From positions 1 to 61,214 of the IMG/VR virus record IMGVR_UViG_3300049733_000144: 61,214 nt of DNA; one strand, written 5' to 3'. The notes beneath the pieces were generated by a model that was not told where the DNA came from, ran no database searches, and saw only the letters and a list, made by a program, of their open reading frames with translations. Origin of the DNA: a virus. The position numbers and the translations under genes are program-made. Of this stretch, positions 1,747-8,801 are shown one piece after another (positions within the stretch are counted from its first letter, which is position 1; each line of letters opens with the position of its first letter).

Positions 1747-3975
1747 TCAAAATTCCATCCATTCTTTGGCGAGGGCTTCAACGTCCAAAACCCTGGTAGT
1801 TTTCAGCAGCTCCTTGATCGGAATCTCAGTCATGGATTTGCTGCTGCACAGCACCCTTCCGTGCCTCCAGGTGGCATCCACGGCTACCTGATCAGGGTGC
1901 ACGAACCATCCTTTGGCTTTGGCAACTTTCCGGATAGTAAGGGGTTTTTCCAGCCTGTCGTTCTGGCGTCCGTCGTAGATGATGGCTCTGATCAATTTTA
2001 CGAACTTGACGTCGTAGATCGCCACTCCTGGGCTCTTCCACTCTCCGTTCGTGGCGGTCTGCGGCCTGGTGTTCCTGGCGATCCAGTCCTGGTCCTGCAT
2101 GTTGTCTGCTATCTTGTCCAGGAGGCCCGAGACCAGCGATTGCCCAGGCGAATATCCTTCTTCTATGACTTCCTTCTTCTGCGTGCTCCACGGAGCCGAA
2201 GAAGACCTGTCCACGGCGTCGTTCGTCTTGAGCCAAGTCTCGGCCCAGTGCTTGATTGCCTCCAGGCCACCGCCGTCGGTCAGCCACCTGTTGAGCTCGT
2301 TCCAGTATTCCGGAGTCTTTTTCTCGTCCGTGACCTTGGGAACGAACCAGCGCCTGTCGTCGCCGGACAGCTGGATGGCCCGCATGGAGTTGCTGCAAGC
2401 GAACACGTGAAGCCAGTTGTCGATGTCGTAGTCAGCGAGATATTTCTTGCGAACAGAGCACTCCTTGTCGGTGAGCACGGACTTGAGCTTGTTGTATGCC
2501 TTGCTGCTGTGGCCGGCGTAGATCTCGTGAACGACGGCCAGCCGCTTGTGGGCCTGCCAGTAATTGAAATTGGAATCGACGATGTCCGACTCGGAAGGAA
2601 ACGACGCGTTATTGCGCCCGACCAGAGGGCACAAGATCCGCTCTCCGAGCGTTCCTTTGCCGACGCCCTGCGTCTCGCTGATGAGGAGAACGCCGTAATT
2701 CATCTTGATTTCCGGCTTCGCTATCAGCGTCGCGATCCAGCGGAGAATCTCCGTCCTGTCGGACTCGACGGGAATCAAGTTCGCCACGAATTCCAGGAAC
2801 GGTCCGGGATCACCGGCTTCTGCTTTCACCGAGCTCGGAACGTGCGTGTTGATGAATCGCCCCGAATCTCCAGAGCCGTATATTCCCGGTTTCTTCGAAG
2901 GATCGTACTTGATCACGGCAGTCTTGCTGGCTCCGTCGACGCGCATCAGCCTAGCCGTGTCTTCGACGTCGGAGAACGGCCGCACGGTGTTGTTGAACTC
3001 GCGATCCGACAGCATGCGGTCCGGCCAGTCTCGGTGGACGAACACCTCCGGCCTGACGCAGTGGAGCCACTCTTCCTTGAACGCCCTCCTGATGACGTGA
3101 TATGTCCGGCGGCCGTTCAGAAGAGTCTCCGTGGCGTGAGTCGCCGGCACCATCAAGTCGCGGAGTCTCGGTCCGATCCAGCGGTTTCTGACGAACAAAT
3201 TTTCGGGCATGTCGTCGGCCATGTCCCAGGCCAGAGGCCAGCGGCCGTCGAACCGAACTCCCTTCAGGGCTCCGCCGTACGCCTTGGAGACGATCTGGAG
3301 GGCCGCCTGGCCCTCCCAGTCGTTGTCGCAGACGTACACCACCTCCGTCGGCCTGGCCCGCCTGAGCTCGCTGTAGTCGGTCCTGTGCGGCGCCAAGGCT
3401 CCGCCGATCATTCCCCAGTGGGCGTACTGAGCCAGCTCGTCGCGCCACGGGTGCCGGTCTCCGACGCGATCAGCCGCCATGGCCGCCTTCGCGCCTTCGT
3501 GGATCATGATCCGAGGTCTGGTGACCTCTGGCTTCCAGAACGGCAGGCTGCCGTCTGGCTCCATGGCTCGCCACTCGCCGTCAGAGAACAGAGTCCAGGA
3601 AACGTACTTTTTCCTGCCGTCGCCTTCGCGTCGCTCCTGGAGCATCACGATGCCGTCGCGGGCCAGGTTCCAGAACGCGGCGACCTGAGTCATCCCGCGT
3701 CGCTGCTCCAATTCCCGCGCGTTGGCGCTTGTGGCCAGGACCGCCCGCGGCCAGTTCGCCGTCAGGACGGCCGTCCGGATCGCCGTCGCCTCGTCCTCCG
3801 TGGGCTCGAGCGATGGATCGGTTACTGTCACCGATCCATCAATTCCAATTCTTATGATGGCTTTCTCTGTGTAATAGTTCCTGTCGTGGTTGTACTCTTT
3901 CACCATGTACTTGCGAAAGTTGATTTGCTCCGCGCCGATCCTGTCCGCGTAGGCCTCGAGTGCCGGCAGTCGCAT
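1747..3975 (-). CDS. Primase-helicase (TOPRIM-like domain plus superfamily 3-type ATPase)
   Basis: 742 residues. The N-terminal half has TOPRIM-like elements: IHEGAKAA at about 158-165 and VYVCDND at about 213-219, the acidic residues that bind metal in primases. The C-terminal half is a D5/DUF5906-like helicase: Walker A SETQGVGKGT at about 433-442, Walker B-like LAVVHEI near 479, sensor VFACSNS near 524 and an arginine motif GDDRRWF near 538. It would prime and unwind at the phage fork. It is transcribed away from the divergently oriented polymerase block. There is no separate primase or replicative helicase elsewhere in the window. Confidence 0.85.
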   Translation of the reverse strand: MRLPALEAYADRIGAEQINFRKYMVKEYNHDRNYYTEKAIIRIGIDGSVTVTDPSLEPTEDEATAIRTAVLTANWPRAVLATSANARELEQRRGMTQVAAFWNLARDGIVMLQERREGDGRKKYVSWTLFSDGEWRAMEPDGSLPFWKPEVTRPRIMIHEGAKAAMAADRVGDRHPWRDELAQYAHWGMIGGALAPHRTDYSELRRARPTEVVYVCDNDWEGQAALQIVSKAYGGALKGVRFDGRWPLAWDMADDMPENLFVRNRWIGPRLRDLMVPATHATETLLNGRRTYHVIRRAFKEEWLHCVRPEVFVHRDWPDRMLSDREFNNTVRPFSDVEDTARLMRVDGASKTAVIKYDPSKKPGIYGSGDSGRFINTHVPSSVKAEAGDPGPFLEFVANLIPVESDRTEILRWIATLIAKPEIKMNYGVLLISETQGVGKGTLGERILCPLVGRNNASFPSESDIVDSNFNYWQAHKRLAVVHEIYAGHSSKAYNKLKSVLTDKECSVRKKYLADYDIDNWLHVFACSNSMRAIQLSGDDRRWFVPKVTDEKKTPEYWNELNRWLTDGGGLEAIKHWAETWLKTNDAVDRSSSAPWSTQKKEVIEEGYSPGQSLVSGLLDKIADNMQDQDWIARNTRPQTATNGEWKSPGVAIYDVKFVKLIRAIIYDGRQNDRLEKPLTIRKVAKAKGWFVHPDQVAVDATWRHGRVLCSSKSMTEIPIKELLKTTRVLDVEALAKEWMEF

Positions 3976-4111
3976 CGCGTTCTCTCCGATTTGATTTCAC
4001 TTTAATTTGACTATTTCGCCTTGAAAATAGTATTTTGACACACTACTCAAATAATTGTTTTTCTGTCTCTTTTTCTCTGGTACAGATGCCTCAGCACATC
4101 ACGGTGAACGC
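3976..4111. promoter_or_regulatory. Divergent intergenic region between primase and the early rightward block
   Basis: 136 bp of AT-rich DNA separates the leftward primase gene from the first rightward gene. TTGAC occurs twice in the rightward direction (near 4007 and 4034), but no -10 with ideal spacing follows. It should contain back-to-back promoters for both transcripts; this rests on position rather than clear boxes. Confidence 0.4.
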
Positions 4112-4657
4112 ATGACAGATCGCCTCGAAGACATAACGCGCCTCGCGTCCGCGGCCCGCGTCCTGGAAGCGGAGATCCTCCGCGACGAAATCGCTCTCTC
4201 CCACAAGAAGGCTCGACTCCAGCGCGTCCTCCATGACCAGCTGCCGAGCCTGATGTCGGCCGCCGGCGTCGACGACCTGTCGCTTCAGGCCAGCGACGAC
4301 CTGCCGGCGACTGATTTCTCCCTCGGCGGCTACTACAGGGCCTCGATTCCGGTCTCGTGGTCGGCGGAGCGGCGCCAGGAAGCATTTTCCACGCTTCGCG
4401 CCCGCGGAGCCGACGGCCTGATCAAGACCAACGTTCAAGTTCAGTTCGCCAGAGGCTCTTCCCTGGAAGCCCGCGTCCTGGCCGACTCGCTCGCGGCCAG
4501 AGGCTATGAACCGTCGCTCTCAGAGACGGTTCACTCTTCCACCTTGTCCGCGTGGCTCCGCGAGCTCTACTCCAGCGGCCTGTCGCTGACCCAGGACGAC
4601 CTGGACAGGATCGGAGGCAATGTCGGTCAGATCGTTCGCATGAAACCAAGGGAGTGA
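4112..4657 (+). CDS. Conserved phage hypothetical protein with N-terminal coiled coil
   Basis: 181 residues. Residues 1-45 are charged and helical (RLEDITRLASAARVLEAEIL), with a coiled-coil look. The remainder contains an Arg-rich stretch (SAERRQEAFSTLRARGADG) and ends in MKPRE. The ATG at 4112 is preferred over the in-frame TTG at 4055 because the extra 19 residues look untranslated and a weak GGTGA precedes 4112. It is followed after 1 nt by the next gene. I do not recognise a domain; as the first early gene it may take part in replication or recombination (inference). Confidence 0.7.
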   Translation: MTDRLEDITRLASAARVLEAEILRDEIALSHKKARLQRVLHDQLPSLMSAAGVDDLSLQASDDLPATDFSLGGYYRASIPVSWSAERRQEAFSTLRARGADGLIKTNVQVQFARGSSLEARVLADSLAARGYEPSLSETVHSSTLSAWLRELYSSGLSLTQDDLDRIGGNVGQIVRMKPRE

Positions 4658-4658
4658 C

Positions 4659-5465
4659 ATGACCAAAGAGATCAAGACGACGACGACGCCGCCGTCCGTT
4701 CCCGATTACCTCAAGGGCCACGTTCCCACCGGCGCGGGAGTTCCCACCAAGTCCAGCGACTTCCTGATTCCCATAGCCAAGGTCCTCGATCCGAAGTCAC
4801 CGGAAGTCGAGCGCAGAGGCCCGTCCTACGTCAAGGGCGCGGAGCCCGGCGACGTCCTGATCAAGTCCGGACCCATTCCCCTGATCAAGGGCGAAGTTGG
4901 TTTCCTGTTCCAGCTCTGCCACATAGAAGAGGCCGCGATCGAGTGGCTGCCCAGGACCAGGGGCGGCGGCGGCGGAGGTGGCTTCGTGGCCAGGCATCCC
5001 GTGGAAGCTCTGCGGACGGCTAAGCAGGAAACCGCGGAAGGCGGCAAGATTGTCTGGATCAACGACCGAGGCAATTTCCTGGTGCACACCCGCTACTACA
5101 CGGGATACATGCTGGCCGCCGACGCCGGGCCTCTGGCCATGGTGATACCGTTCGCGTCCACCGGCCACACGGTGGCCAAGGGCTGGAACCTCCTGATCGC
5201 CAACCAGGTCCTCAACGGCCACACCGCCGACGTCTGGATGGTGTACTACCGACTCAGGACGCGACTCCGCACCAGGGCCGACCAGGCCTGGTACGTGTTC
5301 GAAGTCTCCAACGCTGGTCCGGACCATCCCACCTACGGCACGCCGACCGCCATGTGGGCTCCGACTCCGGCCGACCTGGCCAGAGGCCAGACGCTGAACA
5401 GGGAGATGGAAGCCGGCCACAGGCAGCCCGACCCAGCCGCCGTCACCGAGGAGGCTCCGTTTTGA
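4659..5465 (+). CDS. Conserved phage hypothetical protein, early replication block
   Basis: 268 residues. No catalytic motif is recognised. Seen are a Thr/Pro-rich N-terminus, a glycine loop (RGGGGGGGF near 102-110) and a C-terminal acidic, Pro-rich tail ending in EEAPF, reminiscent of the acidic tails of single-stranded DNA-binding proteins. The central part is rich in beta-strand-forming residues (MVYYRLRTRLRTR). An ssDNA-binding role fits the position and tail but is a guess. Its stop overlaps the TTG start of the next gene by 3 nt within TTGA. Confidence 0.65.
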   Translation: MTKEIKTTTTPPSVPDYLKGHVPTGAGVPTKSSDFLIPIAKVLDPKSPEVERRGPSYVKGAEPGDVLIKSGPIPLIKGEVGFLFQLCHIEEAAIEWLPRTRGGGGGGGFVARHPVEALRTAKQETAEGGKIVWINDRGNFLVHTRYYTGYMLAADAGPLAMVIPFASTGHTVAKGWNLLIANQVLNGHTADVWMVYYRLRTRLRTRADQAWYVFEVSNAGPDHPTYGTPTAMWAPTPADLARGQTLNREMEAGHRQPDPAAVTEEAPF

Positions 5466-7198: not shown

Positions 7199-7263
7199 GG
7201 CCGGGCCGGGCGTGGCTGGGCGCGGCTCGGCTGGGCTAGGCCGGGCGAGGCAAGGCAAGGCAA
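7199..7263 (+). repeat. GGCNN pentamer array 1 (13 perfect units)
   Basis: Thirteen consecutive 5-nt units all begin GGC; positions 4 and 5 vary freely (CG, CG, GT, TG, GC, TC, TG, TA, CG, GA, AA, AA, AA). The last three are GGCAA. It ends 24 nt before the ATG at 7288, so it is a 5' leader. Repeated GG every 5 nt is the spacing of a two-layer G-quadruplex, but conservation of the C suggests sequence recognition too. Confidence 0.9.
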
Positions 7264-7287
7264 GCAAGACAATGATGGAGCACGACG

Positions 7288-7906
7288 ATGCTGGACAAGA
7301 CAGTGATCGCGACCAAAGCGACGGAGATCCAGACCAGAAGCGTGATGCTTCGGGGACTGACGGATATCATGTTCGACCGCTACCCGGGAGACAACAACAC
7401 CAAGCTGGAGCCGTGGCAGAAGCTCTACCTGGAACCTGGCGGGTCACGGGTTATTGGGCTGCCGGCGCTGAACATCATGTCGTTTCTTTCGGCCCACAAC
7501 ACAAATTCCGCTCCTAAGCGGCTGCGCGACAAGCGCAAGTACAAAGACCTGGCTAACGCGATGCTGTCGTTCGTCAGCATCAGGGAGCAGTTCATTCCTC
7601 TGCTCCGCAACAACGCTCCGATCGTGTTCGGCAAGTTCGACGGAGACAGAGATGCGGTCAGCGGCGCTTACGTGGCCTATCACGTCGCGCGGCTCGACAA
7701 GGGCGTGCCCAACCCGAAGGTCCGTCCCGTGGTGCCTCTGGACTGGGCCGTTCGCTTCACGGTCGACATCTTTCCCAATCGGGGAGATCAAGGAAACCGA
7801 CATCACCAACCTGATGGAAGAAGGCGGGCGAGCCATTGGCCTCGGGACTTTCCGCGGCGTGTTCGGCAAGTTCCGCATCGAAGAGTGGAACGAGATCAAG
7901 AGCTGA
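7288..7906 (+). CDS. Conserved early phage protein, reading frame shifted by +1 near 7774
   Basis: The intact protein would be about 206 residues. Frame 1 from ATG 7288 (GGAG 7 nt upstream) reads a sensible protein to VDIFPN. From about 7774 the sensible continuation is in frame 2 (GEIKETDITNLMEEGGRAIG, then GTFRGVFGKFRIEEW) to the TGA at 7904-7906, whereas frame 1 becomes Arg/His-rich. The junction is TTT CCC AAT CGG GGA; skipping one base restores the frame. This may be a sequencing indel, a real mutation or programmed +1 frameshifting at CCC. I associate the C-terminal GTFRGxFGxF pattern with a conserved phage family of unknown role. It is flanked by GGCNN arrays on both sides. Confidence 0.7.
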
Positions 7907-7911
7907 AATTC

Positions 7912-8031
7912 GGCGTGGCCGGGCTCGGCCAGGCGCGGCGGGGCGCGGCTGGGCATGGCGTGGTGCGGCCAGGCTGGGCACGGCGTGGCACGGCAGGGCA
8001 TGGCATGGTAGGGCCGGGCAAGGCGAGGCGA
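7912..8031 (+). repeat. GGCNN pentamer array 2 (24 units)
   Basis: Twenty-four consecutive 5-nt units; 22 begin GGC and two begin GGT (units 11 and 20). Positions 4 and 5 vary. It begins 5 nt after the preceding stop and ends 11 nt before the ATG of thyX; the last units supply GGCGAGG, which doubles as the thyX ribosome-binding site. The phase is unbroken for 120 nt. Same organisation as array 1: the array fills the gap and ends at a start codon. Confidence 0.9.
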
Positions 8032-8042
8032 GGAAATAAATC

Positions 8043-8801
8043 ATGCGCGTCACACTGATCGACTACACCGGCAAGGGCTCTCCGAGCGAGCGCTGGAGGG
8101 CCGCGGACCTGATGATCTTCACCAAGAGCACCAGGGTCGCGATGTCGCCGTCTCTCCTCGACGAGATCACCGCGTGGCCAGAGGACAAGAAGCTCGCCGA
8201 GCTCCAGTACATGGCCAACACCATTCCCAGCTCGTGGGAGTTCTGCGACTACACGTTCATGGTGGAAGGAGTCACCCGCGCGCTGACGCACCAGCTGGTG
8301 CGGCACCGCCACATGTCGTTCGCCCAGCAGACCATGCAGATCCTCGACATGAGCCAAGGTCCGGGGTGGACCTATGAAGAGGGCCCTTCTCTCAGGGCTT
8401 CTTCATCTGGAAGTTCTTTGTATCAAAGGACCATGGAGAACGTGGCCAAGGGATACGCCCTGCTTGTCAAGACACCCGGCGTGCGGATAGAGGACGCCAG
8501 AGGAGTTTTACCAACCAACATCCACACCAACATCGTGGTCAAGGCCAACATGCGCTCCCTCGTGGAGCTGTTCCACAAGCGCGACAGTCCCAGGAACCTG
8601 TGGGAGATATCAGCCTTGATGGATCTCATCAAGGCCGAGGTTCTCAAGGCTCACTCGTGGATGGATTTGTTCATCAACAGAACATTCGACCAGGCGGCCA
8701 AGGACCTCGACAAGGAGCTCCGCTCGCTCGACGGCGTGGCTCCAGACAAAGTTAATCGCATGATGAAGCTGGTCGATCAGATGAGGATGAAATCGTCGTG
8801 A
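8043..8801 (+). CDS. thyX: Flavin-dependent thymidylate synthase ThyX
   Basis: 252 residues. The ThyX signature is present as RHRHMSFAQQT (87-97), corresponding to RHR-x7-S but with Thr at the last position. THQLVRHR and the C-terminal half (FHKRDSPRNLWEISALM) fit the fold. ThyX methylates dUMP using methylene-tetrahydrofolate and FAD/NADPH, giving dTMP for phage DNA synthesis. GAGG at 8030-8033, supplied by the pentamer array, is the likely ribosome-binding site. The Ser-to-Thr change is conservative; altered chemistry on dUMP cannot be excluded. Confidence 0.88.
   Translation: MRVTLIDYTGKGSPSERWRAADLMIFTKSTRVAMSPSLLDEITAWPEDKKLAELQYMANTIPSSWEFCDYTFMVEGVTRALTHQLVRHRHMSFAQQTMQILDMSQGPGWTYEEGPSLRASSSGSSLYQRTMENVAKGYALLVKTPGVRIEDARGVLPTNIHTNIVVKANMRSLVELFHKRDSPRNLWEISALMDLIKAEVLKAHSWMDLFINRTFDQAAKDLDKELRSLDGVAPDKVNRMMKLVDQMRMKSS

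What the first reader, a model, noticed from the sequence alone, without database searches (positions are those of the whole stretch)
7199..8031. Two phased GGCNN pentamer arrays flanking one gene in the early operon
Seen directly: 13 perfect GGCNN units at 7199-7263 and 24 units (22 GGC, 2 GGT) at 7912-8031, in unbroken 5-nt phase, with the last two bases of each unit free to vary. Each array fills an intergenic gap and ends just before a start codon (7288 and 8043). Constancy of GGC with random NN is not simple tandem duplication; it implies selection on every fifth-base register. Possible roles: RNA leader bound by a multivalent protein, a two-layer G-quadruplex or R-loop former, a recombination seam, or a translation standby site. 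I know of no described element of this exact form.
Basis: seen in the sequence. Interest (0 to 1): 0.88.

Follow-up and report, generated by a model that had tools for sequence, protein, structure and literature searches.

The report
Phage guide-RNA (VIPR) repeat locus
The two odd five-base repeat arrays around one phage gene are the guide-RNA genes of a VIPR system, a recently described relative of CRISPR that phages use against competing phages, so the find is real but belongs to a kind published in 2026.

Summary
Dinucleotide shuffles of the window never exceed a run of 4. The interpretation can be replaced. The arrays are vrRNA genes, and the gene between them (7288-7906) encodes Vipr, the RAMP protein of the VIPR systems described in preprint PMC13142463 (GGY/NN guide RNAs). 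A profile built without SUSP1 finds the solved SUSP1 Vipr (PDB 36pp) at E=8e-46; the window clade alone finds it at 1e-6. The predicted fold (pLDDT 93.7) matches Csm3/Cas7 RAMPs. Of 84 relatives fetched by protein alone, 72 carry such arrays nearby, and all 168 arrays lie on the vipr strand. The window belongs to a fully supported clade far from SUSP1. In this clade the last array units are mostly AA/GA, 46% of arrays exceed the reported 16 units, and no shared accessory gene was found. Two cautions: the window's vipr frame is broken near 7780, while all 84 relatives have it whole; and no target was found for either guide, so the DNA-reading code is inherited from the paper and not shown here. 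Verdict: new member of a known, very young kind.

The parts
7199..7263 (+). vrRNA array 1: 13 GGCNN units; NN = CG CG GT TG GC TC TG TA CG GA AA AA AA
7249..7263 (+). last three units of array 1 (AA AA AA), the clade's conserved 3' end
   Evidence: second- and third-last units are AA or GA in 74-82% of clade arrays, against 22-23% inside arrays
7277..7280 (+). GGAG, Shine-Dalgarno-like, 7 bases before the vipr start
   Evidence: read from sequence
7288..7906 (+). vipr gene (RAMP protein, about 205 aa when read through); G-loop-like GRAIGLGTFRGVFGKF near the C-terminus; frame broken near 7780
7774..7785 (+). site of the one-base frame break in vipr (real mutation or assembly error not distinguishable)
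   Evidence: the frame is unbroken in all 84 relatives
7912..8031 (+). vrRNA array 2: 24 GGYNN units; NN = GT CG TC CA GC GG GC TG AT GT GC CA TG AC GT AC AG AT AT AG CG AA GA GA
8017..8031 (+). last three units of array 2 (AA GA GA), the clade's conserved 3' end
8030..8033 (+). GAGG overlapping the last unit, Shine-Dalgarno-like for thyX at 8043 (spacing 9)
   Evidence: read from sequence

Best explanation
The segment 7199-8031 is a VIPR locus of a tailed phage: two vrRNA genes flanking vipr. Inferred mechanism, by homology with SUSP1 (PMC13142463): each array is transcribed with the early operon. Vipr subunits bind the GGY triplets along the RNA. The exposed NN pairs read double-stranded DNA as NN, one skipped base, NN, and so on, and binding silences genes of a competing phage or satellite. 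Shown here: the arrays and their statistics, the protein's family and fold, the strand and neighbour rule, the conserved 3' units, and the broken vipr frame in this assembly. Not shown: transcription, RNP formation, the target, and whether this copy still works.
For:: an iterative profile seeded from window relatives, with SUSP1 held out, finds SUSP1 ALH47069.1 at E=3.9e-49, and the gaps beside that gene hold GGY arrays. PDB 36pp 'SUSP1 Vipr protein' is the only strong hit (7.7e-46 with 54 sequences, 1.1e-6 with the nine-member window clade). AlphaFold2 pLDDT 93.7, best PDB folds Csm3/Cas7 RAMPs (E 3e-6, probability 1.00); of 84 relatives found by protein alone, 72 have arrays within 1.5 kb and 168 of 168 arrays are on the vipr strand; ten of the 11 others examined show interrupted arrays in phase on the same strand; the reverse search gives 86 of 120 array loci with a vipr and 317 of 326 arrays on its strand; internal NN entropy 3.8 of 4 bits with conserved 3' units, the make-up of a guide with a handle; the paper gives the same form and a working mechanism.
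Against: The vipr frame is broken in this assembly. Array 2 has 24 units, more than the 9-16 reported. No structured 3' tail is present. No target was found, so the 1-nt skip rule is untested in this clade. Pairwise identity to SUSP1 Vipr is low, and single-sequence phmmer gives only E=0.027.
Confidence: 0.93

Rival explanations
1. A VIPR locus that is no longer functional: the vipr frame break is a real mutation and the arrays are relics or are served by another Vipr. (Compatible with the identification above, not with present function.)
For: Frame break near 7780. All 84 close relatives have the frame whole. Mycobacterium phage Gorge has a similarly broken vipr among intact sister phages, so loss happens in isolates.
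Against: The arrays are perfect in register with intact 3' units, so any loss is recent. A one-base slip in a metagenome assembly is equally possible.
Confidence: 0.35
2. Cis-acting leader or standby elements that set expression of the following genes (vipr, thyX).
For: Each array ends just before a start codon, and GAGG at the end of array 2 is well spaced for thyX. The array RNAs fold well as single strands (z -1.9 and -4.1).
Against: Arrays follow vipr and not thyX. Neighbour genes vary widely in 84 relatives, and arrays often lie in series far from a start codon.
Confidence: 0.03
3. Structural DNA element: G-quadruplex, R-loop former or recombination seam.
For: Regularly spaced GG pairs could form two-layer quadruplexes; the arrays lie at gene boundaries.
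Against: Does not need a RAMP gene at every array, a fixed strand relative to it, near-random NN inside and AA/GA units at the 3' end only.
Confidence: 0.02

Closest known systems
VIPR system of Escherichia phage SUSP1 (KT454805.2; PMC13142463; PDB 36pp)
   Same: Homologous Vipr RAMP protein; GGY/NN arrays in the gaps beside vipr, same strand; phage-borne.
   Different: Window Vipr lies in a separate 74-row clade with 100/100 support, on the far side of the tree from SUSP1. No structured 3' tail. Array 2 has 24 units. GGC rather than mostly GGT. No vap1-like neighbour.
VIPR-like loci in Cheoctovirus mycobacteriophages (Philus, DRBy19, Mattes, Saal, BobaPhett, Gorge, SwagPigglett, James)
   Same: GGCNN arrays directly upstream of an unannotated Vipr homologue (E about 1e-46); they were found because array 2 matched their arrays.
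   Different: Staggered arrays with register shifts, beside the immunity repressor and excise genes, with a conserved gp53-type gene behind vipr.
Class 1 CRISPR RAMPs (Csm3/Cas7)
   Same: Fold of the protein; backbone protein that lines a guide RNA.
   Different: No CRISPR repeats, no cas genes, far shorter repeat period, guide information in every fourth and fifth base only.

Membership tests
VIPR | Vipr RAMP-family protein homologous to SUSP1 Vipr | tested here: met
   (SUSP1 held out of the profiles)
VIPR | RRM/RAMP fold with glycine-rich loop | tested here: met
   pLDDT 93.7; best hits Csm3/Cas7; conserved G180, G184, G186, R189, G193
VIPR | vrRNA of tandem GGY/NN units with hypervariable NN | tested here: met
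VIPR | 9-16 units per vrRNA (as described for the characterised clades) | tested here: inconclusive
   array 1 has 13 (met), array 2 has 24 (not met); 68 of 147 clade arrays exceed 16. A reported range of characterised members rather than a strict definition.
VIPR | invariable 3' tail after the repeats | tested here: inconclusive
   no structured tail before the next start codon; instead the last in-register units are mostly AA/GA across the clade
VIPR | arrays transcribed and co-purifying with Vipr | not testable with these tools
   needs RNA sequencing and pull-down
VIPR | NN pairs read DNA with a 1-nt skip | tested here: inconclusive
   no target found for window guides, and no excess for any skip length among held loci; a SUSP1 guide used as control also found none in IMG/VR, so the test has little power
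VIPR | vap accessory gene (typical, not obligatory in the paper) | tested here: not met
   no neighbour family is shared by most of 84 relatives and the window has none of the recurrent ones beside vipr
VIPR | intact vipr reading frame | tested here: not met
   frame break near 7780 in this assembly; intact in all 84 relatives. Bears on present function, not on ancestry.
CRISPR-Cas class 1 | CRISPR repeat-spacer array with cas genes | tested here: not met
   5-nt period arrays only; neighbours are phage replication and nucleotide-metabolism genes

The most novel reading that the evidence does not exclude
The window's clade is a distinct long-guide form of VIPR. Its guide RNAs have no separate folded tail; the 3' handle is written in the repeat register itself as two or three AA/GA units. 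One RNA can carry 20 to more than 40 units and so read a DNA stretch far longer than any guide tested. Among 24 clade arrays of at least 24 units, the AA/GA end signature is not enriched internally (6 internal triplets against 5.5 expected), which fits single long guides and not strings of short ones.
Probability: 0.35. Interest if true: 0.65.

Novelty: new member of a known kind. Interest (0 to 1): 0.48.

Why it matters
VIPR is only months old in the literature and rests on few characterised members. This locus and its 84 relatives show an independent, far-diverged clade in which the arrays track the protein almost without exception. That is strong comparative support that GGYNN arrays and Vipr form one system. 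The clade raises a testable question about how long a guide can be and how its 3' end is defined. The finding also led to VIPR-like loci in cultured mycobacteriophages, which offers a second laboratory model.

Tried and rejected
Target search for the decoded guides. Own record and about 1.8 Mb of held loci, skip 0-3 (reversed-order controls for the window's guides): nothing above chance. IMG/VR exact patterns: array 1 units 1-10 and array 2 units 1-9 gave none; 8-unit sub-patterns gave 2, 8 and 8 hits, none extending to a convincing full guide (best 10 of 13 units), consistent with chance. SUSP1 guide as control: none in IMG/VR. Candidimonas prophage guide in 4 genomes and 269 family genomes: none. 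A first PDB search that included SUSP1 in the alignment was circular and was repeated without it. Rfam: nothing in the window, so no hammerhead at gathering thresholds. Promoter and terminator scan uninformative. No tRNA. Cultured-phage and plasmid tblastn with the single window protein: no match; the mycobacteriophage Viprs appear only with the profile. Type assignment within the paper's seven types was not possible because its supplement is not readable here; the tree shows only that the window clade lies far from SUSP1.

Full report
Observation. The two arrays are exactly as described: 13 GGC units at 7199-7263 and 24 GGY units at 7912-8031. Nothing similar occurs elsewhere in the window. 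Shuffles reach runs of at most 4 (window) or 5 (local), against 13 and 24. NN pairs are close to random (3.56 bits over 37 pairs) and the arrays share no unit run longer than one, so the pattern is conservation of a register and not recent duplication.

Identification. A literature search for pentanucleotide repeats and phages returned PMC13142463, which describes VIPR: a RAMP protein, Vipr, of about 20 kDa and guide RNAs of alternating GGY/NN units that read DNA with a one-base skip. This predicted that the gene between the arrays should be a RAMP. It ends in GRAIGLGTFRGVFGKFRIEEW, a glycine-loop-like motif. Its C-terminal part hits phrog_4652, an unnamed phage family matched by 54 of 55 family members.

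Tests of the protein. Homologues of this gene were collected from loci fetched by the array pattern. A profile that excluded SUSP1 found the characterised SUSP1 Vipr at E=3.9e-49 and its solved structure 36pp at 7.7e-46; nine window-clade sequences alone gave 1.1e-6, and no other PDB entry was a credible hit. AlphaFold2 on the read-through window protein gave pLDDT 93.7, and Foldseek ranked Csm3/Cas7 RAMP subunits first.

Tests of the association. Searching by array: 86 of 120 viral loci with eight GGCNN units encode a Vipr homologue, and 317 of 326 arrays are on its strand. Searching by protein alone, free of that bias: 72 of 84 relatives have arrays of at least seven units within 1.5 kb, and 168 of 168 are on the vipr strand. 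Of the 12 others, 11 were examined; ten show interrupted arrays in phase on the same strand and one is cut by a contig end. The twelfth, L168, was not examined; it has the same identity to the query and the same length as L167, which was.

Anatomy of this clade. The window Vipr falls in a 74-row clade with 100/100 support, separate from SUSP1 (the bootstrap had not fully settled). In 147 distinct clade arrays the internal NN pairs carry about 3.8 of 4 bits, while the second- and third-last units are AA or GA in 74-82%. Window arrays end AA AA AA and AA GA GA. There is no room for a folded tail before the next start codon, and GAGG at the end of array 2 doubles as a likely ribosome-binding site for thyX. 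Sixty-eight of 147 arrays exceed 16 units, and in arrays of 24 or more units the AA/GA end signature is no commoner inside than shuffles give. No accessory gene is shared by most of the clade; neighbours are diverse phage replication and recombination genes (assigned by eye from the representative sequences, not by a family search).

State of the locus. The window's vipr frame shifts by one base near 7780, while all 84 relatives are unbroken over the matched stretch. Whether this is real or an assembly slip cannot be told. Mycobacterium phage Gorge shows a comparable break among intact sister phages.

Function. By homology the arrays are guides and the complex silences competing phages. The decoded guides find no target in the phage itself, in held loci or in IMG/VR, and a SUSP1 guide finds none in IMG/VR either, so the code is neither supported nor contradicted in this clade.

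Verdict. Observation confirmed, mechanism identified by homology, kind already described in 2026. New member, with clade features (in-register 3' ends, long arrays, no shared accessory gene) that may amount to a variant if the paper's supplement does not already hold them.

Noticed in passing
L234-L241 (mycobacteriophages Philus, DRBy19, Mattes, Saal, BobaPhett, Gorge, SwagPigglett, James), about 3400-4900 of each locus: Temperate Cheoctovirus mycobacteriophages carry staggered GGCNN arrays directly upstream of an unannotated Vipr homologue (E about 1e-46) and a conserved gp53-type gene, between the antirepressor and excise genes. Sister phages differ by whole 5-base units in one array, keeping the register.
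   Followed up: partly
L239:3661-4878 (phage Gorge): The vipr gene is frame-shifted and fused to the next gene, unlike its sisters, a parallel to the window's frame break.
   Followed up: partly
L007:6351-6978, L072:4371-5137, L034:7742-9112: Very long GGYNN stretches of 30-130 units beside vipr.
   Followed up: no
L017:1118-1163: A 9-unit GGCNN array is readable on both strands at once (complementary arrays one base out of step), with no Vipr found in the locus.
   Followed up: no
L035 and L089: The only two loci whose arrays lie on the strand opposite to the neighbouring vipr.
   Followed up: no
L081:9715-9774: An array whose first eleven or so NN pairs are all AC, i.e. a true GGCAC-type tandem repeat, unlike the hypervariable rule.
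   Followed up: no
L199:4721-5521 and seven other relatives: A metallophosphoesterase-like gene sits next to vipr in 8 of 84 relatives, a possible accessory gene of one subgroup.
   Followed up: no
window:57195-59894: A single 899-aa frame matches both head maturation protease and major head protein families, a fused protease-capsid gene.
   Followed up: no
window:5354-7131: A phrog_4828 protein of unknown function and an FkbM methyltransferase lie directly upstream of the VIPR locus.
   Followed up: no
window:16804-17616: ParB-like partition protein, which could hint at plasmid-like maintenance.
   Followed up: no
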